From an uncultured Maribacter sp. (GTDB lineage: Bacteria; Bacteroidota; Bacteroidia; Flavobacteriales; Flavobacteriaceae): 64,000 nt of DNA. Of the stretch, positions 4,029 through 36,668 are shown piece after piece. A program made the position numbers and the translations under genes. How positions within the stretch are numbered: the first letter of the stretch is position 1; every line of letters starts with the position of its first letter. The notes beneath the pieces were generated by a model. That model was not told the DNA's origin and made no database searches. It saw nothing but the letters and a program-made list of their open reading frames with translations. Location of the stretch: NCBI RefSeq assembly GCF_947495965.1, contig NZ_CANMBB010000005.1, forward strand, positions 62,001 through 126,000. Direction: 5' to 3'.

Positions 4029-4898
4029 TTAAATTCCTATTCTTATTCCTGTTCTAAAATACAAACCTGGCTTGTTATTTAATATAAATACACTATTCCT
4101 GTCTGTATCTCTTAACGATCCATTTTGTATTATACTATGTCCTCCCATAAGATATACTGAAATATCTTTAGTTATCTTATGCTGGTAGCCAATAGTTGCT
4201 AAAAAAGAAGTAGATGAAACATCTGTTGAAGTACTATTATCATCTAACAAAATGTCATTCTGAATATTTACATAATACCCGTCTAAAATTAATTCCGTTT
4301 GAAAAAAATGATCCTTCTTTAAAAAATATTTTAAGCCAGTTTTTGGGACTCCTAATGTGTAGGACCAGTTTTTATGAAATCTTTTTTCATAATATACAAA
4401 TGGTAATGGCACTCGTACTGACGATGTATTGTTATAGGACAAACCCAATACTAATCTAAAAGGTTTTTCAATATCTTTTTTTTCTTTAAAAGCTCCTGCT
4501 GTCACGTTTATTTTAAAATCTTTTTCATCAAACTCTACGGAGAAATTTGAAGCCCATCTAGGGGTTATTAAACCTATAAACCTCCAATCATCATTCCATT
4601 TAAGGACATATCCAAAATTTAAATCTACCACATAAAATTTTGCTAAAGCTTCTTGGGCTTCAACCGTTAACGTAGATGGTATTTCATAATCGTATTGATT
4701 ATATTCTGCTCCTATAACTAGCACATCTTTTTTAAATACTTTAATAGGAACATTAGCTACTAATTTAATCCTAGATGTTCTATTACCCACATCAGTCTTA
4801 GGTAATAGCATATACTCTGCTCTAAAAACATCTGGAGTTTGCGAATAACTCAAAAAATGAAAAATAAAAAAAATAAAAAAATAAAAACCCTTATTCAT
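4029..4898 (-). CDS. DUF6268-type outer membrane beta-barrel protein
   Basis: The protein has 289 residues with a signal peptide (FFIFFIFHFLSYSQ). The rest alternates short amphipathic beta strands (for example RIKLVANVPIKV, YVVDLNFGYVLKW, WRFIGLITPRWASNF, FRTGIRIGI) and ends in an aromatic/hydrophobic strand, as expected for an outer-membrane barrel. The ITPRWASNF segment and overall length match what I know of DUF6268 proteins in Bacteroidota; their role is unknown. It lies 9 bp upstream, in transcription order, of the sigma-54 regulator, so the two may share a message. Confidence 0.65.
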   Translation of the reverse strand: MNKGFYFFIFFIFHFLSYSQTPDVFRAEYMLLPKTDVGNRTSRIKLVANVPIKVFKKDVLVIGAEYNQYDYEIPSTLTVEAQEALAKFYVVDLNFGYVLKWNDDWRFIGLITPRWASNFSVEFDEKDFKINVTAGAFKEKKDIEKPFRLVLGLSYNNTSSVRVPLPFVYYEKRFHKNWSYTLGVPKTGLKYFLKKDHFFQTELILDGYYVNIQNDILLDDNSTSTDVSSTSFLATIGYQHKITKDISVYLMGGHSIIQNGSLRDTDRNSVFILNNKPGLYFRTGIRIGI

Positions 4899-14859: not shown

Positions 14860-14997
14860 ATACAAAAAAGCTATCATTACTGCCGTAAATCTGCATTTTC
14901 ACAAACCCTAAATATTATATCTCAGATATTTACGCACAATAAATATGATACCCACAAAATAATAGGGATATAATTATCATAAACATAAAAATTACAA

Positions 14998-15045
14998 AAC
15001 TACCCCCTATTTTTTTAGGGGGTAGTTCATTTTAACATATATTTG
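14998..15045 (+). promoter_or_regulatory. Promoter and putative nitrogen operator of glnB-amt-porin
   Basis: A perfect 12-bp inverted repeat (14998-15009 and 15016-15027, loop TTTTTT) contains ACCCCCT at 15002-15008. The -7 box TATATTTG is at 15038-15045 and a weak -33 TTAG at 15015-15018, 19 bp before it. The glnA (GSII) promoter has the same ACCCCCT, TTTAG and AACATATnTTTG elements at identical spacing over 44 bp. The repeat overlaps the -33 region, as expected for a regulator site. Confidence 0.7.
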
Positions 15046-15068
15046 GCAGCGTAAACAACAAACGAATT

Positions 15069-15407
15069 ATGAAAAAAATCGAAGCAATTATCAGAAAATC
15101 AAAGTTTGATGATGTTAAAGAAGCATTACATCAAATAGAGGTAAACTTTTTTAGTTACTGGGACGTAACCGGTGTAGGTAACGAAAAACAAGGACACGTT
15201 TATCGTGGAATTTCTTATAGTACCACAGACATTCAAAGAAGACATCTATCTATAGTAGTATCTGATGATTTTTTAACTAAAACAGTTGAAACATTATTAG
15301 AAGCTGCTTACTCAGGTAATGTAGGTGATGGTAAAATATTTGTGTCCGACGTAGTAGAGGCATACAGAATTAGAACCAAAGAAAGCGGTCACGCTGGAAT
15401 CAACTAA
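15069..15407 (+). CDS. glnB: Nitrogen regulatory protein PII
   Basis: This 112-residue trimeric signal protein reads ATP/ADP and 2-oxoglutarate. The start MKKIEAIIRKSKFDDVKEAL and the nucleotide loop SGNVGDGKIFVSDVVEAYRIRT are standard. The T-loop (GVGNEKQGHVYRGISYSTTD) keeps a Tyr in the YRG motif where proteobacterial PII is uridylylated, but the loop is diverged and slightly shorter. It sits 33 bp upstream of amt, the usual arrangement for a PII that plugs the ammonium channel. Expression is probably nitrogen controlled through the operator upstream. Confidence 0.95.
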   Translation: MKKIEAIIRKSKFDDVKEALHQIEVNFFSYWDVTGVGNEKQGHVYRGISYSTTDIQRRHLSIVVSDDFLTKTVETLLEAAYSGNVGDGKIFVSDVVEAYRIRTKESGHAGIN

Positions 15408-15439: not shown

Positions 15440-16678
15440 ATGGACGCAGGATTATTTACAGCCAATAACGTATGGATGATGCTAGCAACAGCGCTAGTAT
15501 TCTTTATGCATACAGGTTTTGCCTTTTTAGAAATTGGCTTAACAAGACAAAAAAATACAATAAACATTTTATTTAAAAATATCTTTATTATCACAGGAGG
15601 TCTTCTTCTTTATTATGCATGGGGATTTAACTTAATGTACCCTGGTTTTGAAGACGGAGATATGGGAATTTTAAAATTTGCAGGTTTTGGAATTGGAGCT
15701 CCTGAAGGAGGAATGACAGCTGCTTATGCCGATGGTGGATACACATGGTGGACAGATTTCTTATTCCAAGGAATGTTTGCTGCTACGGCTGCAACTATAG
15801 TATCTGGTGCAGTTGCTGAAAGAATAAAAATTGGTTCTTTCATGATTTTCACAGTTATCTATGTAGGTCTTGTTTACCCTATCGTAGGAGCTTGGAAATG
15901 GGGTGGAGGATTCTTAGATGCATGGGGATTCTATGATTTTGCAGGTTCTACATTAGTACACTCTGTAGGTGGTTGGGCAGCTTTAGTTGCTGTTGCACTA
16001 TTAGGTTCTAGAATTGGAAAATTTGGAAGCGACGGAAAACCAAAAGCAATACCAGGACACAATATTCCACTTGCAACTGCTGGTGTTCTTATATTATGGT
16101 TAGGATGGTTTGGATTTAACGGTGGATCTGTTCTTTCTGCAGACCCAGAATTAACATCTTTAGTACTAGTTACTACAAGTTTAGCTGCTGCTGCTGGTGG
16201 GTTTGGAGCATTCATTACATCAACAATACTTTACAAAAACTTAGATTTAACTATGTTCTTAAACGGTATTCTAGGTGGATTAGTTGGTATTACTGCTGGA
16301 GCAGATTTAATGTCTCCTAACGAAGCTGTTGTTATTGGTTTCTTAGCAGGTATTATAATTGTACTAGGAGTAGCCTTAGTTGACAAATTAAAATTAGACG
16401 ATCCAGTAGGTGCTATTGCAGTACACCTTATATGCGGTATATGGGGAACTTTAGCAGTAGGTATCTTTGGAAGCATGGCAGGATTTGACCAATTCTTAAC
16501 ACAATTATATGGTGTTCTTATAGTAGGTGGTTTCTGCATAGTAACTTCAGGAATTATACTTGGTGCACTTAAAGCTACTTTAGGATTAAGAGTTTCTAAA
16601 GAAGAAGAATTAGAAGGATTAGACATACACGAACATGGTATGGATGCTTATTCTGACTTTAGAATGAACCAACACTAA
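15440..16678 (+). CDS. amt: Ammonium transporter Amt
   Basis: This 412-residue, 11-helix inner-membrane channel for ammonium or ammonia carries the Amt signature around FNLMYPG and ATAATIVSGAVAERIK. It also has the twin pore histidines in STLVHSVGGW and AVHLICGIWGT. The short acidic/His tail (EEELEGLDIHEHGMD) is cytoplasmic and would face PII. It follows glnB by 33 bp and is followed by an intercistronic hairpin and a porin gene. Confidence 0.97.
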   Translation: MDAGLFTANNVWMMLATALVFFMHTGFAFLEIGLTRQKNTINILFKNIFIITGGLLLYYAWGFNLMYPGFEDGDMGILKFAGFGIGAPEGGMTAAYADGGYTWWTDFLFQGMFAATAATIVSGAVAERIKIGSFMIFTVIYVGLVYPIVGAWKWGGGFLDAWGFYDFAGSTLVHSVGGWAALVAVALLGSRIGKFGSDGKPKAIPGHNIPLATAGVLILWLGWFGFNGGSVLSADPELTSLVLVTTSLAAAAGGFGAFITSTILYKNLDLTMFLNGILGGLVGITAGADLMSPNEAVVIGFLAGIIIVLGVALVDKLKLDDPVGAIAVHLICGIWGTLAVGIFGSMAGFDQFLTQLYGVLIVGGFCIVTSGIILGALKATLGLRVSKEEELEGLDIHEHGMDAYSDFRMNQH

Positions 16679-16796: not shown

Positions 16797-17888
16797 ATGA
16801 AGAAAATTACAAACACAAAGTACGTAAAAAATATATTTGCTTCTGCTTTAATGCTAGCAGCAACTGCAAATACTTTTGCTCAGGATGAAGAAGCAGCGGA
16901 AGAAGCACCAAAATTAGAAATAAGTGGTAGTGTTGACGCTTATTATAGAACTGCTTTTAATGATGCAGGCGCAGCTTCTACAGACCCAGGAACTGCTTTT
17001 GCAAACCAAACTGGTTTTGCTTTAGGTATGGGTAACTTAATTGCTAGTTATGATGCTGGTAAAGTTGGTGCCGTACTTGATATCGTTGTAGGACCAAGAG
17101 GTGCTGGTGCAACTTTTAATACAGATATTGTAGATGGTATTGTAAACCAAGCATATGTTTACTGGAATGTTTCTGATAAAACTACTTTAACAATGGGACG
17201 TTTTAACACGTTCTTAGGGTATGAAGTAATTGCTCCACAAGCAAACTTTAACTATAGTACATCTTATTTATTCTCTAACGGGCCTTTCTCTCATATGGGT
17301 CTTAAAGCTGATTTTGCTTTATCTGATGATTTTAGCTTAATGGTTGGCGTAATGAATCCTTGGGATACAAATGATATATCAGGAACTGGAGAATATTCTT
17401 TTGGAGCTCAGTTAGGTTTCTACGGTCAATATTTAAACTTCTACTATGATAGTGGTAAAAATGGTGGTTTAGGAACTGAGATTGATTTTACAGGTGGATT
17501 TGATATATCTGATTCTTTTTTCTTAGGAATAAACGCTGCTTATGATACTAATTCTAATGGTACTGCAGAAGTTGGTGGTGTTGAACTTGATGCTACTACA
17601 GGATTTTATGGTGTTGCTCTTTACCCACAAATAGCTGCTTCTGATGCTTTTTCTATCGGATTAAGAGCTGAATACTTCCAATCTGTTGTTGATGACGTAA
17701 CTGGAATAGGCGATTTAGATATAGATGGTGTTACTGCTTTTACTCTTACAGGTAGCTACTCTGTAGATAACTTAATCTTAAAGCCAGAATTTAGATTAGA
17801 CAGCTTAAAAGATGGTTTCACTGATAGTGATGGAGCTGCTTCTGATAGCTTAGCAACTTTTGCTTTAGCAGCAATCTACTCTTTCTAA
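16797..17888 (+). CDS. Outer membrane beta-barrel porin of the ammonium operon
   Basis: This 363-residue protein has a signal peptide (to about residue 28, NTFAQDEE). The mature part begins with LEISGSVDAYYR and consists of alternating beta strands with many Gly, Tyr and Asp, ending in the strand FALAAIYSF with a C-terminal Phe, the mark of outer-membrane barrels. It includes the segment QAYVYWNVSDKTTLTMGRFNTFLGYE found in Bacteroidota putative porins. Its place after glnB-amt suggests it lets ammonium or small nitrogen compounds through the outer membrane under nitrogen limitation; this is inference from context. It ends in a bidirectional terminator. Confidence 0.8.
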   Translation: MKKITNTKYVKNIFASALMLAATANTFAQDEEAAEEAPKLEISGSVDAYYRTAFNDAGAASTDPGTAFANQTGFALGMGNLIASYDAGKVGAVLDIVVGPRGAGATFNTDIVDGIVNQAYVYWNVSDKTTLTMGRFNTFLGYEVIAPQANFNYSTSYLFSNGPFSHMGLKADFALSDDFSLMVGVMNPWDTNDISGTGEYSFGAQLGFYGQYLNFYYDSGKNGGLGTEIDFTGGFDISDSFFLGINAAYDTNSNGTAEVGGVELDATTGFYGVALYPQIAASDAFSIGLRAEYFQSVVDDVTGIGDLDIDGVTAFTLTGSYSVDNLILKPEFRLDSLKDGFTDSDGAASDSLATFALAAIYSF

Positions 17889-22425: not shown

Positions 22426-22878
22426 TTAAAAATTTAGCTTACCAACAGGGGCATTAGTAACTACATTAGAAAGTATAATATGGGTTCTAGTTTCACCATA
22501 CTGTATTAATTTATCTATAAATTGCTCTAAATGAAATTGATCTTTTAAAACTACTTCCATTACAATATTTTCATTACCCGTAATTCTATAACAATTTATG
22601 ACCTCCTTGAACTCTTTTACAATTACTAAAAAAGGCTTTAATTTCCCCATAAAAGCCCTTAATGTTATAATTGCTTTTAATTGATGTCCAGTTAAAGAAT
22701 GGGAAACTTTTGTTTTATAACCCTGTATAATTCCTAAATCTTCCATTTTCTTAACTCTCTCTGCAACTGCTGGAGCAGTAAGACCAATTTTTTTGCCAAT
22801 TGCGGTATAAGATTCTCTTGCATTTTCTTGTAAAAAATGAAGTATTTTCCAATTTAACTCATCAATCTTTGTTATCAT
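22426..22878 (-). CDS. Lrp/AsnC family transcriptional regulator
   Basis: The 150 residues consist of an N-terminal winged helix (DELNWKILHFLQENARESYTAIGKKIGLTAPAVAERVKKMEDLGII, 6-51) and a C-terminal ligand-binding RAM/ACT-like domain with AIITLRAFM and CYRITGNENIVMEVVLKD. Such regulators form octamers or hexadecamers and respond to amino acids. Its targets are unknown; the divergent 129-residue gene and purU are the nearest candidates. Confidence 0.95.
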   Translation of the reverse strand: MITKIDELNWKILHFLQENARESYTAIGKKIGLTAPAVAERVKKMEDLGIIQGYKTKVSHSLTGHQLKAIITLRAFMGKLKPFLVIVKEFKEVINCYRITGNENIVMEVVLKDQFHLEQFIDKLIQYGETRTHIILSNVVTNAPVGKLNF

Positions 22879-25420: not shown

Positions 25421-26941
25421 ATGAGGAGACTAAGAATCTTAATCACGTTCTTATTTCTGTTCATAAACCTATATTCTTCTATTGCTAAAGAAGGTATTGG
25501 AACAGAAAAAAAAACTACTAGAGAACTACCTCCCATCAGCTTTCGTAACAAAGCTGACGATTTGTTTATGGAGCAAAATTACAATGATGCTATAGAAACA
25601 TATCAATTAGCATTAGAAAAGGAAATACCAAACAAAGCTCCTGTATTAAAAAAAATTGCACTTAGTTATTCCGCATTAAATAAAACTCAAGAAAGCTTAA
25701 AGTATATTGAAGAATATTTGCATAAAGAATACAACCCTAACATCTTAGCAGATAGTGGTTTTGATACTATTAGAGAAACGGAAGCTTTTGATATTATTGA
25801 AAAAAGATATGTGCCTCAAATTAATATTTGGACTTTTATTTATCTATATGTAGCACTTATAGGTTTTTACTTAACAGTAATTATACACTTTAATAAGAAA
25901 ATTGATTCTATAGCCAAAATACTTATTAGCGCTTTTATTTTTACTCATTCAATATTTATAATTCATATTTTCCTATTCTTAACAAATTATCAATTTAATT
26001 TCCCCAATTCTTATTTAATCTCAACAGGTTTTTCATTTTTATATGGCCCCCTATTATACTTTTATTTTAAAAGAATAACACAACAATATACTTTTAAACT
26101 TAAAGACCTAACACATTTAATTCCTACTCTACTAATTTTTATTTACCTAATACCCAAATACTTACTTCCTATAACTGAAAAATTAGAGATTCTTATAAAT
26201 GAAGCTTCTGGATACACCTCTGAAAATTCTACGGAATTTATAACCATTGTAGTTTTAAAAGTAATATCATTACTTACCTATGGTGTTTTTATTAGAAAAA
26301 TATACTTAAAAAGTCAGTTAGACTCTAATTTATCAGACGAAAACAAGATATGGAAAAAAAATATCTACAGAATACATTTCTTATATTTAATATGTTACTG
26401 TATTTACGGGTTTTTATCCCTAAATAATATCTCTGTTGGATTCTTCTTTAATATGCAAATATTTGCAATGGCTATGATGATTCTATACCTAGGATATTCT
26501 GCAAATGCTCAGCCAGACGTTTTTAGCGGTGTTTTAAATGCTAAAAATGCATTGTTTTTTAAATATCAAAAATCTGGATTAACAGATAGCCTATCTAAAG
26601 AACTTAAAGACAATCTTATTCGATTATTTGATATTGATAAAATATACAAAGAGAACCATATTAATTTAGAAATGGTGGCAACCAATTTGGAAACTACAAG
26701 ACATAATGCTTCTCAAGTTATCAATGAACATTTTAATATGAATTTTAACGAGCTTATTAATTGGTACCGTATAAGAGAGGCTAAAAAAATACTAGACAGC
26801 AATACTGCTAAAAAAATGAATATGATTGACGTTGCTTATGAAGTAGGTTACAACAATAAAGTAACCTTTAACAAAGCATTTAAAAAGGAAACTCTTCTTA
26901 CTCCTAGTCAATATCAAAAAAAAATAGCCCCAAATAGCTAA
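25421..26941 (+). CDS. Membrane-bound AraC-family regulator with N-terminal TPR
   Basis: The 506 residues comprise a signal or first helix (1-22), a short TPR-like segment (about 40-105, KADDLFMEQNYNDAIETYQLALEK), and about seven membrane helices (140-360, for example IWTFIYLYVALIGFYLTVII). A C-terminal AraC/XylS double HTH ends the chain (about 405-503: INLEMVATNLETTRHNASQVINEHF, then MIDVAYEVGYNNKVTFNKAFKKE). The layout implies an inner-membrane sensor with the DNA-binding part in the cytoplasm. Neither signal nor target is apparent. It is followed by a plus-strand terminator. Confidence 0.88.
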   Translation: MRRLRILITFLFLFINLYSSIAKEGIGTEKKTTRELPPISFRNKADDLFMEQNYNDAIETYQLALEKEIPNKAPVLKKIALSYSALNKTQESLKYIEEYLHKEYNPNILADSGFDTIRETEAFDIIEKRYVPQINIWTFIYLYVALIGFYLTVIIHFNKKIDSIAKILISAFIFTHSIFIIHIFLFLTNYQFNFPNSYLISTGFSFLYGPLLYFYFKRITQQYTFKLKDLTHLIPTLLIFIYLIPKYLLPITEKLEILINEASGYTSENSTEFITIVVLKVISLLTYGVFIRKIYLKSQLDSNLSDENKIWKKNIYRIHFLYLICYCIYGFLSLNNISVGFFFNMQIFAMAMMILYLGYSANAQPDVFSGVLNAKNALFFKYQKSGLTDSLSKELKDNLIRLFDIDKIYKENHINLEMVATNLETTRHNASQVINEHFNMNFNELINWYRIREAKKILDSNTAKKMNMIDVAYEVGYNNKVTFNKAFKKETLLTPSQYQKKIAPNS

Positions 26942-33253: not shown

Positions 33254-35440
33254 CTATTTAATGAACAACAATTCTCTGTACTTTGTTAACGGCCAAGTTT
33301 GATCCTCTACAACTTGCTCTAACTTATCACAATGGTATCTTATTTGACTAAAATATGGTTTAACATTTTCACAATAAGCATTTGCCTTTTTTGCACTATC
33401 TAATAGTTTATTAGCTTTTTTCCTAGTATCCGTCATATGGTCCACTAACTTTTTAACCTCTACCAAATGCTCTGCTATTTCCTCTATAATAGATAATTGG
33501 CCATCTGTAAGTTTTTTATGAGCTGCCCCATAAATATCTTTAATACCCATTACATTCTTTATAAGTTTATTTTGATATTCTATGGATGATGGTAGTATAT
33601 AATTATACACTAACTCCTTTAAAACACGACCTTCTATTTGCAAATGAAGAATGTAGGAGTCTAGTTCTACCTCTTGCCTAGCTCTTACCTCTACCTCACT
33701 TAAAACCTTAGTTGCTTTAAAAAGTTCTAGACTTTCTTTGGTTGTAAGCACTTTTAGTGCTTCTGGCGTTGTTTTATTATTACTTAACTTTCTTCTTACA
33801 GCTTCTTTTTCCCATTCTGCACTATACCCATCTCCATCAAAACGAATTCTTTTAGAAGTCTTAATATATTCTCTTAGTACATTAAAAATAGCTTCATCTT
33901 TCTTAAGACTCTTTTTATCTACCAAAGCATCCACCTCTTTTTTAAAATCAGTTAATTGTTTTGCTACAATAGTATTTAATATGGTCATTGGTTTTGCACA
34001 ATTAGTTTTAGAACCAACTCCTCTCATTTCAAACTTATTACCCGTAAATGCAAAAGGGGATGTTCTATTGCGATCCGTATTATCTAGCAAAATTTCTGGT
34101 ATCTTACCAACTACATTAAGCTTAAGCTCTGTTTTTTCTTCAGGTGAAAGTTTTCCCTGAGAAACCCCTTCTAACTCATCTAAAACTCTACTCAACTGGG
34201 AACCAACAAAAATAGAGAAGATTGCTGGTGGTGCTTCATTTGCACCCAATCTATGGTCATTACTTGCTGATGCTATTGAGGACCTAAGCAACTCTTCATA
34301 AGTATTAACCGCTTTAATGGTATTTACAAAAAAGGTTAAGAATTGTAAGTTCTTCATGGGTGTTGATCCTGGACTGAGTAAGTTTACGCCAGTATCTGTA
34401 GCCAATGACCAATTATTATGTTTCCCGGATCCATTTATCTCTGCAAATGGTTTTTCATGAAAAAGAACTTTAAAATTATGCTTATCTGCTATTTTATCCA
34501 TAACATCCATTAATAAGAGATTATGGTCCACAGCAAGATTTGCCTCCTCAAAAACAGGTGCTAATTCAAATTGATTAGGAGCAACCTCATTATGCCTTGT
34601 TTTTACAGGAATTCCTAATTTTGTGCATTCCTTTTCTAAATCGCTCATAAAACTAAGAACCCTACTTGGTATTACTCCAAAATAATGATCATCTAACTGT
34701 TGCCCTTTTGCTGCAGTATGCCCTACTAAGGTTCTTCCTGTTAAAATAATATCTGGTCTAGAATGTGCTAAAGCTTTATCTATTAAAAAATATTCTTGTT
34801 CCCACCCTAAAGTAGCATTTACTTTAGCTACCGTTTTATCAAAATATTTTGCTACTGCAGTTGCAGCCTCATCTACTGCATGCAATGCTCTTAACAATGG
34901 TGCCTTATTATCTAAAGCCTCTCCTGTATATGAAACAAATACCGTAGGAACACATAATGTAGTTCCATAAATAAACGCAGGTGATGTTGGATCCCATGCT
35001 GTGTAACCACGAGCTTCAAACGTATTTCTTATACCTCCACTTGGAAAACTAGAAGCATCTGGTTCTTGTTGCACTAACTGCCCTCCTCCAAATTTTTCCA
35101 AAGCAGTACCATTTGGTAATAAATCAAAAAAAGCATCGTGTTTTTCTGCAGTACTACCTGTTAATGGCTGAAACCAATGCGTATAATGCGTTGCACCCAT
35201 TGCTATTGCCCAACCTTTCATAGCTTCTGCTACCTGGTCTGCAATTTTTCTATCTATTTTTGTACCAGAAAAAATTGCCCCTTGTACACTTTCCAAAGCG
35301 TCCTTTGTAAGGTACTGTAACATTTTCTCTGTATTAAAAACATTTACACAAAATAACTCTGAGCGCCTCCCCTTTTCTTCAATAATTCTACTCTCTCTTT
35401 GGGCACTTTCCGAAATTGCTTTAAATCGTATTTTAGACAT
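33254..35440 (-). CDS. glnN: Glutamine synthetase type III (GlnN)
   Basis: The 728-residue GSIII makes glutamine from glutamate, ammonium and ATP. GSIII-specific parts are visible: MSKIRFKAISESAQRESRIIEEKGRRSELFCVNVFN at the start, HYTHWFQPLTGSTAEKHDAF, EQEYFLID, KTRHNEVAPNQFELAPVFE, NGSGKHNNWS, RLGANEAPPAIFSIFVG and DRNRTSPFAFTGNKFEMRGVGS. I chose the ATG at 35440, which begins with the conserved MSKIRF, over the open extension to 35467. It diverges from the type II enzyme across 205 bp. Confidence 0.96.
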   Translation of the reverse strand: MSKIRFKAISESAQRESRIIEEKGRRSELFCVNVFNTEKMLQYLTKDALESVQGAIFSGTKIDRKIADQVAEAMKGWAIAMGATHYTHWFQPLTGSTAEKHDAFFDLLPNGTALEKFGGGQLVQQEPDASSFPSGGIRNTFEARGYTAWDPTSPAFIYGTTLCVPTVFVSYTGEALDNKAPLLRALHAVDEAATAVAKYFDKTVAKVNATLGWEQEYFLIDKALAHSRPDIILTGRTLVGHTAAKGQQLDDHYFGVIPSRVLSFMSDLEKECTKLGIPVKTRHNEVAPNQFELAPVFEEANLAVDHNLLLMDVMDKIADKHNFKVLFHEKPFAEINGSGKHNNWSLATDTGVNLLSPGSTPMKNLQFLTFFVNTIKAVNTYEELLRSSIASASNDHRLGANEAPPAIFSIFVGSQLSRVLDELEGVSQGKLSPEEKTELKLNVVGKIPEILLDNTDRNRTSPFAFTGNKFEMRGVGSKTNCAKPMTILNTIVAKQLTDFKKEVDALVDKKSLKKDEAIFNVLREYIKTSKRIRFDGDGYSAEWEKEAVRRKLSNNKTTPEALKVLTTKESLELFKATKVLSEVEVRARQEVELDSYILHLQIEGRVLKELVYNYILPSSIEYQNKLIKNVMGIKDIYGAAHKKLTDGQLSIIEEIAEHLVEVKKLVDHMTDTRKKANKLLDSAKKANAYCENVKPYFSQIRYHCDKLEQVVEDQTWPLTKYRELLFIK

Positions 35441-35480
35441 AATTTCCTGTTCTAATAAATAATTCAAATTAAAAATATAT

Positions 35481-35521
35481 CAAAATTACTATCAAAAATT
35501 AGATATTTAACAATTTCCCCT
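35481..35521 (-). promoter_or_regulatory. Candidate GSIII promoter and operator half-site
   Basis: On the minus strand TAATTTTG (35488-35481) fits a -7 box, 41 bp before the GSIII start codon. AGGGG (35521-35517) lies just upstream of the expected -33 position and resembles the inverse of the ACCCCCT element of the glnB and glnA promoters. The match is weaker than at those two sites. Confidence 0.35.
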
Positions 35522-35567
35522 ATAAAATTCAGGGCAAAAAGAAAAAATGAAGCATTTTAACACATTA

Positions 35568-35611
35568 ACCCCCTTTAAATTTAGAAGATAAACACAAAAA
35601 ACATATTTTTG
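35568..35611 (+). promoter_or_regulatory. Promoter and putative nitrogen operator of glnA (GSII)
   Basis: ACCCCCT (35568-35574), TTTAG (35580-35584) and AACATATTTTTG (35600-35611, containing the -7 box TATTTTTG) occur here with exactly the spacing found upstream of glnB. The start codon is 35 bp further on. Unlike at glnB, the downstream half of the inverted repeat is degraded. Confidence 0.7.
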
Positions 35612-35645
35612 TTTGAATCTAAAAGAATTAATAATAAATAACATT

Positions 35646-36668
35646 ATGGCCAAAATTAAATTAGAATACCTATGGTTAGATGGGTATTTCCCAACACAGA
35701 ATTTAAGAAGTAAAACTAAAGTTGAAGAGCATGAAGACTTCAAAGGAACTCTTGAGGAGCTTGATAATTGGTCTTTTGATGGATCATCTACTAGACAAGC
35801 AGAAGGAGGATCTTCTGACTGTTTATTAAAACCAGTTGCTATTTACCCAGACCCAGCTCGTATTAATGGATACTTGGTAATGACTGAAGTTTTAAATGCA
35901 GATGGTACTGCTCACGTTTCTAACGGTAGAGCTACTATTGATGATGATGACAATGATTTCTGGTTTGGTTTTGAGCAAGAATATTTCATTATGGACACTA
36001 AAACACAATTACCTTTAGGATTCCCTGTAGGTGGTTATCCTGGTCCACAAGGTATGTACTACTGCTCTGTTGGTGGAAAAAACACATGGGGTAGAGATTT
36101 AGTAGAAGAGCACGCTAATTTATGTATAGATGCTGGTCTTAACTTTGAAGGTATTAACCAAGAGGTTGCTGCTGGTCAATGGGAATTCCAATTATTTGCA
36201 AAAGGAGCTAAAAAAGCTGGAGATGAAATTTGGATAGCTCGTTATTTATTAGACCGTTTAACGGAGCAATATGGTTACTATATTGAGTACCACCCAAAAC
36301 CTCTTGGAAAAGATATGGATTGGAATGGTTCTGGTATGCACGCTAATTTCTCTAACACTATTCTAAGAACATGTGGAGACAAAGAAGTTTATGCTAAAAT
36401 CTGTGAGGCTTTCCGCCCAGTTGTAGATGAGCATATTGCTGTTTACGGTGAGTTTAACGACCAACGTTTAACAGGTTTACATGAAACTGCTGCTATTACA
36501 GATTTTTCTTGGGGAGTTTCTGATAGAGGTGCATCTATCCGTATTCCAATTATTGCTGTGGAAAAAGGATGGAAAGGTTGGTTAGAAGATAGAAGACCAG
36601 CTTCTAATGGTGATCCATACAAAATTGCAGGTAGAATTATTAAAACAGTTAAATCTGCAAACATATAA
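35646..36668 (+). CDS. glnA: Glutamine synthetase type II, beta-grasp/catalytic short form
   Basis: The 340-residue GS of eukaryote-like type II has LEYLWLDGYFPTQNLRSK, WSFDGSSTRQAEGGSSDCLLKP, FGFEQEYFIMD, GINQEVAAGQWEFQLF, GSGMHANFSNT and DRGASIRIP. All match the ATP, glutamate and metal sites of GSII. I chose the ATG at 35646 (MAKIKLEYLW) over an open extension to 35613, which would include the -7 box region. The gene is monocistronic, ends in a terminator and lies head to head with GSIII. It shares a promoter block with glnB-amt. Confidence 0.95.
   Translation: MAKIKLEYLWLDGYFPTQNLRSKTKVEEHEDFKGTLEELDNWSFDGSSTRQAEGGSSDCLLKPVAIYPDPARINGYLVMTEVLNADGTAHVSNGRATIDDDDNDFWFGFEQEYFIMDTKTQLPLGFPVGGYPGPQGMYYCSVGGKNTWGRDLVEEHANLCIDAGLNFEGINQEVAAGQWEFQLFAKGAKKAGDEIWIARYLLDRLTEQYGYYIEYHPKPLGKDMDWNGSGMHANFSNTILRTCGDKEVYAKICEAFRPVVDEHIAVYGEFNDQRLTGLHETAAITDFSWGVSDRGASIRIPIIAVEKGWKGWLEDRRPASNGDPYKIAGRIIKTVKSANI

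What the first reader, a model, noticed from the sequence alone, without database searches (positions are those of the whole stretch)
14998..15045. Shared promoter block of glnB-amt-porin and glnA: a candidate nitrogen regulon site
ACCCCCT, TTTAG and AACATATnTTTG occur upstream of glnB (15002, 15014, 15034) and glnA (35568, 35580, 35600) with exactly equal spacing over 44 bp, while the bases between differ. At glnB the C-block belongs to a perfect 12-bp inverted repeat. The C-block ends 5 bp before the weak -33 element, where an activator or repressor would sit. Nitrogen control in Flavobacteriia is poorly described, so this may be the site of an unknown regulator. The GSIII promoter has a weaker inverse copy near 35517.
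Basis: partly seen in the sequence, partly recalled or inferred. Interest (0 to 1): 0.72.

Follow-up and report, generated by a model that had tools for sequence, protein, structure and literature searches.

The report
Paired nitrogen operator of Flavobacteriales
In this bacterium and many of its relatives, genes that take up and assimilate ammonium share two palindromic DNA sites five helical turns apart, which look like the docking sites of a nitrogen-control protein that has not yet been identified.

Summary
It is a pair of dyads, ACCCC-N~10-GGGGT, centres about 53 bp apart, at about -91 and -38 of a sigma-A promoter (-7 box TAnnTTTG). A profile trained on glnB and glnA promoters finds the element in 156 of 249 family genomes. 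All 119 strong sites whose genes I read lie at glnB-amt, glnA|GSIII, GSIII or gltB|porin. Sites were also seen at ald, ureABC|urtA, amt and nirB; a few weaker hits had no nitrogen gene. The proximal dyad is a full palindrome at glnB and porin promoters but in only 2 of 51 glnA promoters. The regulator is not identified: two Lrp/AsnC clades, one inside the window, are missing from complete genomes that have the site; an AsnC-like and a short MerR protein are too universal to judge. Sigma-54, RNA-element and terminator readings are not supported. Activation versus repression is undecided.

The parts
14950..14968 (+). distal dyad of the glnB promoter (CCC 14951-14953, GGG 14965-14967, centre 14959, about -91)
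   Evidence: conserved in relatives
14998..15027 (+). proximal dyad of the glnB promoter, a perfect 12-bp inverted repeat (centre 15012.5, about -38)
15038..15045 (+). -7 box TATATTTG of glnB; start of transcription inferred at about 15050
   Evidence: box position -12 to -5 from PMC9723704, passages read
15069..15407 (+). glnB, PII protein
   Evidence: Pfam P-II
15440..16678 (+). amt, ammonium transporter
   Evidence: Pfam Ammonium_transp
16797..17888 (+). BBP2-type beta-barrel porin, probable operon member
   Evidence: Pfam BBP2
35516..35535 (+). distal dyad of the glnA promoter (CCCC 35517-35520, GGG 35532-35534, centre about 35526), between glnA and GSIII
35568..35587 (+). proximal half-dyad of the glnA promoter (CCCCC 35569-35573; right arm degenerate)
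35604..35611 (+). -7 box TATTTTTG of glnA; start of transcription inferred at about 35616
35646..36668 (+). glnA, glutamine synthetase
   Evidence: Pfam Gln-synt_C and Gln-synt_N
33254..35467 (-). glnN, GSIII (ORF from a TTG; first ATG at 35440), divergent from glnA; a TAATTTTG box on this strand at 35488-35481 (read by eye)
   Evidence: Pfam GSIII_N
22426..22878 (-). W-Lrp, Lrp/AsnC-type gene between glnB and glnA; considered as the regulator and not supported
   Evidence: Pfam

Best explanation
The block is the operator of a nitrogen-control transcription factor of Flavobacteriales. A dimeric protein binds each dyad (half-site ACCC(C), arms about 14 bp apart). Two such dimers, on the same DNA face five helical turns apart, sit at about -91 and -38 of a sigma-A promoter and tune glnB-amt-porin, glnA (and probably the divergent GSIII) and ald together with nitrogen status. 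Shown: the sites, their rigid geometry, their conservation, and that the strong sites read lie at nitrogen genes. Inferred: that a protein binds, that the signal is nitrogen status, and the sign. Working choice for the sign: repression in nitrogen excess by covering the -33 region, leakier at glnA, where the proximal site is a half-site (about 50%; activation about 40%). The regulator is unidentified; best guess the near-universal AsnC-like protein (about 25-30%). The confidence below is for the operator claim, not for sign or regulator.
For: Two dyads recur before glnB and glnA in many genera. R1 hits 156 of 249 family genomes; 119 of 119 strong sites read have a nitrogen gene starting within 450 bp: 52 glnA with GSIII, 34 glnB (29 with amt), 29 gltB with porin, 1 gltB, 3 GSIII. 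Untrained targets: ald in 7 loci including the own genome, ureABC|urtA, amt, nirB. Rigid geometry: full pairs 52-53.5 bp apart in 54 of 59, C-run to G-run centres 13.5-14.5 bp in 137 of 166 dyads although run length varies; proximal centre -37.9, sd 0.8, from the inferred start in 110 sites. Proximal dyad full in 31 of 31 glnB and 25 of 25 porin sites, 2 of 51 glnA sites.
Against: No binding or expression data. Single dyads are not enriched in the own genome. 93 of 249 family genomes have no hit at E<=1e-5, and only 17 of 395 in a phylum sample. Some weaker hits have no nitrogen gene: L107 and L110 of 20 loci read; L101 and L109 have only a Gcw_chp gene. Of the 119 sites, 12 show no full dyad by my rule and 9 lack a proximal C-run in register with a -7 box. 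The profile was trained on glnB and glnA, so hits there are not independent. No tested regulator tracks the sites.
Confidence: 0.85

Rival explanations
1. The regulator is the Lrp/AsnC protein next to ald (LrpN) or the one inside the window (W-Lrp), a local amino-acid-sensing regulator.
For: LrpN lies within a few kb of ald and its site in six genomes read. Both are commoner in site-bearing genomes: LrpN 140 of 156 against 51 of 93, W-Lrp 133 of 156 against 45 of 93 (relatedness not corrected).
Against: LrpN is missing from 16, W-Lrp from 23 and both from 7 of 156 site-bearing genomes, among them single-contig genomes G143 and G270. No paired dyad before LrpN in 30 loci; single matches upstream in L127 and L138 only. 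Lrp boxes have narrower arm spacing, about 11 bp (recalled).
Confidence: 0.12
2. The regulator is the near-universal AsnC-like protein (own genome C2:112488, 159 aa).
For: Present in 243 of 249 family genomes and 154 of 156 with the site, often 84-100% identical. Closest solved relative is E. coli AsnC; NCBIfam's best model is AsnC, below its cut-off.
Against: It is as common in genomes without the site, so presence says little. No site seen before its gene. Its box type would need wider arms than recalled Lrp boxes.
Confidence: 0.27
3. The regulator is a MerR-type protein, for instance the short 109-aa MerR found in every genome tested, working like GlnR/TnrA of Bacillus.
For: Found in 38 of 38 genomes tested, 22 with and 16 without the site; short like TnrA, with a weak, sub-cut-off NCBIfam TnrA match at E 7e-4. 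The 14-bp arm spacing equals that of the GlnR/TnrA box (recalled).
Against: Lies between an M23 peptidase and a LemA gene, not nitrogen genes (names partly by eye). Universal, so presence says little. Other MerR models score higher.
Confidence: 0.15
4. The palindromes are transcription terminators or RNA hairpins of the leader, not operators.
For: Perfect 12-bp stem with 6-base loop; a terminator-like hit at 14997-15028.
Against: That hit reads only on the minus strand, where no gene was found to end. No Rfam match in 14000-36500. At glnA the right arm is degenerate while left arm and spacing stay. The dyads lie upstream of the -7 box. The pair recurs beside different upstream genes.
Confidence: 0.03
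5. The promoters are sigma-54/NtrC promoters as in enterobacteria.
For: Nitrogen genes with paired upstream sites; an NtrC-type activator could in principle use such sites.
Against: No GG-N10-GC in 14901-15069 or 35481-35646; the conserved element is a sigma-A -7 box. PMC12316311 (passages) ties sigma-54 control of glutamine synthetase mainly to Pseudomonadota.
Confidence: 0.03

Closest known systems
Bacillus GlnR/TnrA operators (MerR family; recalled, no call)
   Same: Nitrogen regulon including glnA; two operators near one promoter; arm-to-arm spacing of 14 bp
   Different: Box letters differ (TGTNA-N7-TNACA); here the pair is 53 bp apart and the regulator is unknown
Archaeal NrpR operators (recalled, no call)
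   Same: Paired palindromes on one DNA face that control glnA- and glnK-type genes
   Different: GGAA-N8-TTCC boxes; no NrpR was looked for here
E. coli Lrp/AsnC regulation (recalled, apart)
   Same: Targets such as gltB and ald; AT-rich palindrome centres; an Lrp/AsnC gene near ald here
   Different: Recalled Lrp boxes have narrower arms; neither LrpN nor W-Lrp is needed where the site occurs
Enterobacterial NtrC with sigma-54
   Same: Two upstream sites before nitrogen genes
   Different: No sigma-54 element; sigma-A -7 box instead

Membership tests
Bacteroidetes sigma-A promoter | -7 box TAnnTTTG | tested here: met
   Present at glnB and glnA; TAnnTTT[GA] in register with the proximal C-run in 110 of 119 sites
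Bacteroidetes sigma-A promoter | -33 element with TTG | tested here: inconclusive
   TTG in the window in 13 of 110 sites, 48 of 213 control promoters and 40 of 213 random stretches
Sigma-54/NtrC promoter | GG-N10-GC element | tested here: not met
   None in the two promoter stretches
LrpN or W-Lrp regulon | Regulator present wherever the site is | tested here: not met
   Missing from 16 and 23 of 156 site-bearing genomes
AsnC-like protein regulon | Regulator present wherever the site is | tested here: inconclusive
   154 of 156, but also nearly universal elsewhere
AsnC-like or MerR regulon | Protein binds the dyads | not testable with these tools
   Needs purified protein
MerR (GlnR/TnrA-like) regulon | MerR protein present wherever the site is | tested here: inconclusive
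   38 of 38 genomes, 22 with and 16 without the site
MerR (GlnR/TnrA-like) regulon | GlnR/TnrA box TGTNA-N7-TNACA (recalled) | tested here: not met
   The conserved arms are C/G runs
Intrinsic terminator | Stem followed by T-run on the strand of the upstream gene | tested here: not met
   Only a minus-strand match; crcB upstream is on the plus strand
Known RNA element | Match to an Rfam family | tested here: not met
   0 matches at gathering scores in 14000-36500

The most novel reading that the evidence does not exclude
The pair of dyads is the master nitrogen operator of Flavobacteriales, reaching some other Bacteroidia, read by a transcription factor unrelated to NtrC, NtcA, AmtR and GlnR. 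It would be an independent solution to nitrogen control that gates PII-amt, both glutamine synthetases, alanine dehydrogenase, urease and urea uptake, and nitrite reductase through a rigid five-turn two-dimer complex.
Probability: 0.4. Interest if true: 0.82.

Novelty: new variant of a known kind. Interest (0 to 1): 0.66.

Why it matters
How nitrogen assimilation is controlled in Bacteroidota seems little described. Nine answered full-text searches listed no paper whose title or abstract start describes such an operator; the library lacks most subscription journals, and I opened only two papers, in passages. Flavobacteriia matter in nitrogen-poor waters (recalled). The element gives a concrete, conserved DNA bait, a first list of target genes, and a built-in comparison (full palindrome at glnB and porin-amt, half-site at glnA), so an open question becomes directly testable in a cultured strain.

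Tried and rejected
(1) One C-block as the unit: a single dyad is not enriched in the genome; the pair is the unit. (2) LrpN beside ald as regulator: missing from 16 of 156 site-bearing genomes, no paired dyad before it in 30 loci. (3) W-Lrp inside the window: missing from 23 of 156. (4) Listing the regulators of the small site-bearing genome G073 to exclude families: only 1.19 of about 1.69 Mb could be fetched. A recalled MerR signature gave no strict match there, yet the family search shows one MerR gene (C13:257) inside the fetched part and the short one (C11:66148) outside it, so the signature missed one and no exclusion is claimed. (5) The short MerR as a discriminating regulator: in 38 of 38 genomes. 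(6) Sigma-54, terminator, Rfam RNA: not supported. (7) Using the -33 element to decide activation or repression: inconclusive. (8) asd of G035 as a target: the site lies behind it, before a gene without a Pfam family.

Rows dropped or not read. The 119 sites are, by my reading's capped list, its rows from genomes not read before, without reverse-strand duplicates of the same palindrome; they are sites, not genomes. Hits weaker than about 5e-9 were not listed and not read. Weak hits beyond the 20 loci fetched were not read. In one search, 5 hit loci were read for genes (L457, L458, L463, L464, L465). In one search, 34 of 35 promoters gave a region (L044 did not); 31 of the 34 went into the alignment, three near-identical ones (L006, L035, L055) left out. 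Presence lists were typed from the outputs; their totals equal the tallies.

Full report
Observation. The composite pattern occurs twice in the window without mismatch and never in 100 shuffles. With a relaxed -7 part and two mismatches allowed, the whole genome has the two perfect places and one 2-mismatch place that I did not read. The perfect 12-bp repeat at glnB has arms 14998-15009 and 15016-15027.

What the blocks are. AACATATnTTTG holds TATnTTTG, the sigma-A -7 box TAnnTTTG of flavobacteria, placed at -12 to -5 in F. psychrophilum (PMC9723704; passages read, outline). That puts the starts at about 15050 and 35616 (inference). The rest, ACCCCCT with TTTAG, is a palindrome at glnB and half of one at glnA; TTTAG is part of the right arm at glnB.

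Footprinting. I took upstream regions of glnB and glnA orthologs from 60 genomes, the own one included, in coding orientation. Two dyads recur, not one. By reading, dyads lie before the glnB operon in 22 of 27 ortholog loci: 16 directly before glnB, and 6 where R1 finds the site 1.2-2.8 kb upstream, before a porin in the three of them read. The pair, sometimes with a degenerate member, lies directly before glnA in 22 of 30 loci. The own distal dyads are at 14950-14968 and 35516-35535; both own pairs are about 53 bp apart.

Profile. An alignment of 31 such regions gave a sequence-only profile, R1 (its E-values are rough). In 60 genomes it hit glnB and glnA promoters from 3.6e-17 down to about 1e-7, and new places. 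Of 20 loci then fetched, 16 have a nitrogen gene beside the site: 7 ald, 4 porin operons (3 divergent from gltB), 3 GSIII, 1 amt|ilvD, 1 glnB. The other four are L101 and L109 (a Gcw_chp protein; such a gene also precedes glnB in an Alistipes locus) and L107 and L110 (no nitrogen gene). The own genome's third strong site is before ald, with C-runs 52.5 bp apart (measured by hand).

Family scan. 156 of 249 genomes of the family, 147 of 235 genera, have a hit at E<=1e-5. I read 119 strong sites (24 ready loci and 95 fetched). All 119 have a nitrogen gene starting within 450 bp: 52 glnA with GSIII, 29 glnB with amt, 5 glnB, 29 gltB with porin, 1 gltB, 3 GSIII. The porin sites are independent of the training set. 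The porin start is nearer than the gltB start, so gltB itself may or may not be controlled.

Wider reach. In 395 genomes of the phylum R1 hit 17 at E<=1e-5: 16 in the same family, one (G648) in another family of the class. There it lies before a nirB-type gene, cut by the locus end; the best NCBIfam model is NirB, below its cut-off on this fragment. In G421 it lies between ureABC and urtA, in G578 before an ammonium transporter, in G361 between glnA and GSIII, in G186 between gltB and a porin-amt operon. Of 80 named glnB loci, 31 have a hit at E<=0.01: 29 of the first 39, mostly Flavobacteriales (Maribacter, Robiginitalea, Flagellimonas, Lutibacter, Zunongwangia, Salegentibacter, Aquimarina, Leeuwenhoekiella and others; weak in Flavobacterium jejuense), and 2 of the other 41 (Candidatus Alistipes merdigallinarum, Tangfeifania). 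In two Aquimarina loci (L395, L406) the hit lies behind glnB. A Cryomorphaceae locus (L410) has three dyads at 52-52.5 bp steps; of the 41 loci L412-L452, four have a single dyad by my rule and none a pair.

Geometry. Of the 119 sites 59 show two full dyads by my strict rule, 48 one and 12 none. Full pairs are 52-53.5 bp apart in 54 of 59. C-run to G-run centres are 13.5-14.5 bp apart in 137 of 166 dyads, although run length varies. In the 110 sites with a proximal C-run and a -7 box in register, the proximal centre is at -37.9 (sd 0.8) from the inferred start. 53 bp is five turns of B-DNA, so both dimers would face the same side.

Gene-specific difference. The proximal dyad is a full palindrome in 31 of 31 glnB and 25 of 25 porin sites but in 2 of 51 glnA sites; the distal dyad is full in 29 of 31, 20 of 25 and 40 of 51. 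This conserved grading fits tight control of uptake and PII and looser control of glnA. It suits repression by covering the -33 region, but an activator with a weak half-site next to RNA polymerase would look similar. The -33 element did not decide it: TTG in 13 of 110 sites, 48 of 213 control promoters, 40 of 213 random stretches.

Regulator. An Lrp/AsnC gene (LrpN) lies near ald in six genomes read, and another (W-Lrp) lies in the window between glnB and glnA. Both are commoner in site-bearing genomes, with relatedness uncorrected, yet 16, 23 and, for both together, 7 of 156 site-bearing genomes lack them, among them single-contig G143 and G270. A third, very conserved AsnC-like protein is in 243 of 249 genomes and 154 of 156 site-bearing ones; its closest solved relative is E. 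coli AsnC. A short MerR protein is in 38 of 38 genomes tested. Being universal, neither can be told from any other core regulator by this test. The 14-bp arm spacing fits recalled MerR-type boxes better than recalled Lrp-type ones. I leave the regulator open.

Other readings. No sigma-54 element, no Rfam match, and the terminator-like fold reads on the strand that no upstream gene uses.

Literature. Answered paper searches listed no description of this operator. I read passages of PMC9723704 and PMC12316311; the rest I saw as listings.

Verdict.

Noticed in passing
L410, centres about 58, 110 and 162 bp upstream of glnB: A Cryomorphaceae glnB locus carries three tandem dyads at 52-52.5 bp steps, which hints at a repeating, helically phased protein array.
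   Followed up: no
G421, L457 about 1480-1600: The operator pair lies between ureABC and urtA, extending the regulon to urea use in an unnamed genus (g147).
   Followed up: partly
G648, L464 about 1490-1600: Operator pair before a nirB-type gene in a genome of another family of the class.
   Followed up: partly
genus g147: Four genomes of this unnamed genus have an R1 hit while at least 16 listed ones have none, so the operator seems lost or diverged within one genus; the named Flavobacterium jejuense locus L399 has a degenerate TACCC...GGTA pair.
   Followed up: no
L496:1411-1740 (own genome C4:298939): A 109-aa MerR-type gene between an M23-type peptidase and a LemA-type gene was found in 38 of 38 genomes tested; I know of no function for it.
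   Followed up: partly
L311:3489-3965 (own genome C2:112488): An AsnC-like protein is 84-100% identical in most listed rows across the family, stronger conservation than the other Lrp/AsnC proteins searched.
   Followed up: partly
W-Lrp homologs of G062, G220, G098, G022, G219: The search reports one stop codon inside the matched stretch of these homologs; not checked whether these are broken genes or matches running past the gene end.
   Followed up: no
window 25421-26941: A TPR protein with a C-terminal AraC-type DNA-binding domain lies between glnB and glnA; its role is unknown.
   Followed up: no
L106 (G035), 4405-4519: An operator-like pair lies between an amt gene and an ilvD-led operon; which side it serves is open.
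   Followed up: no
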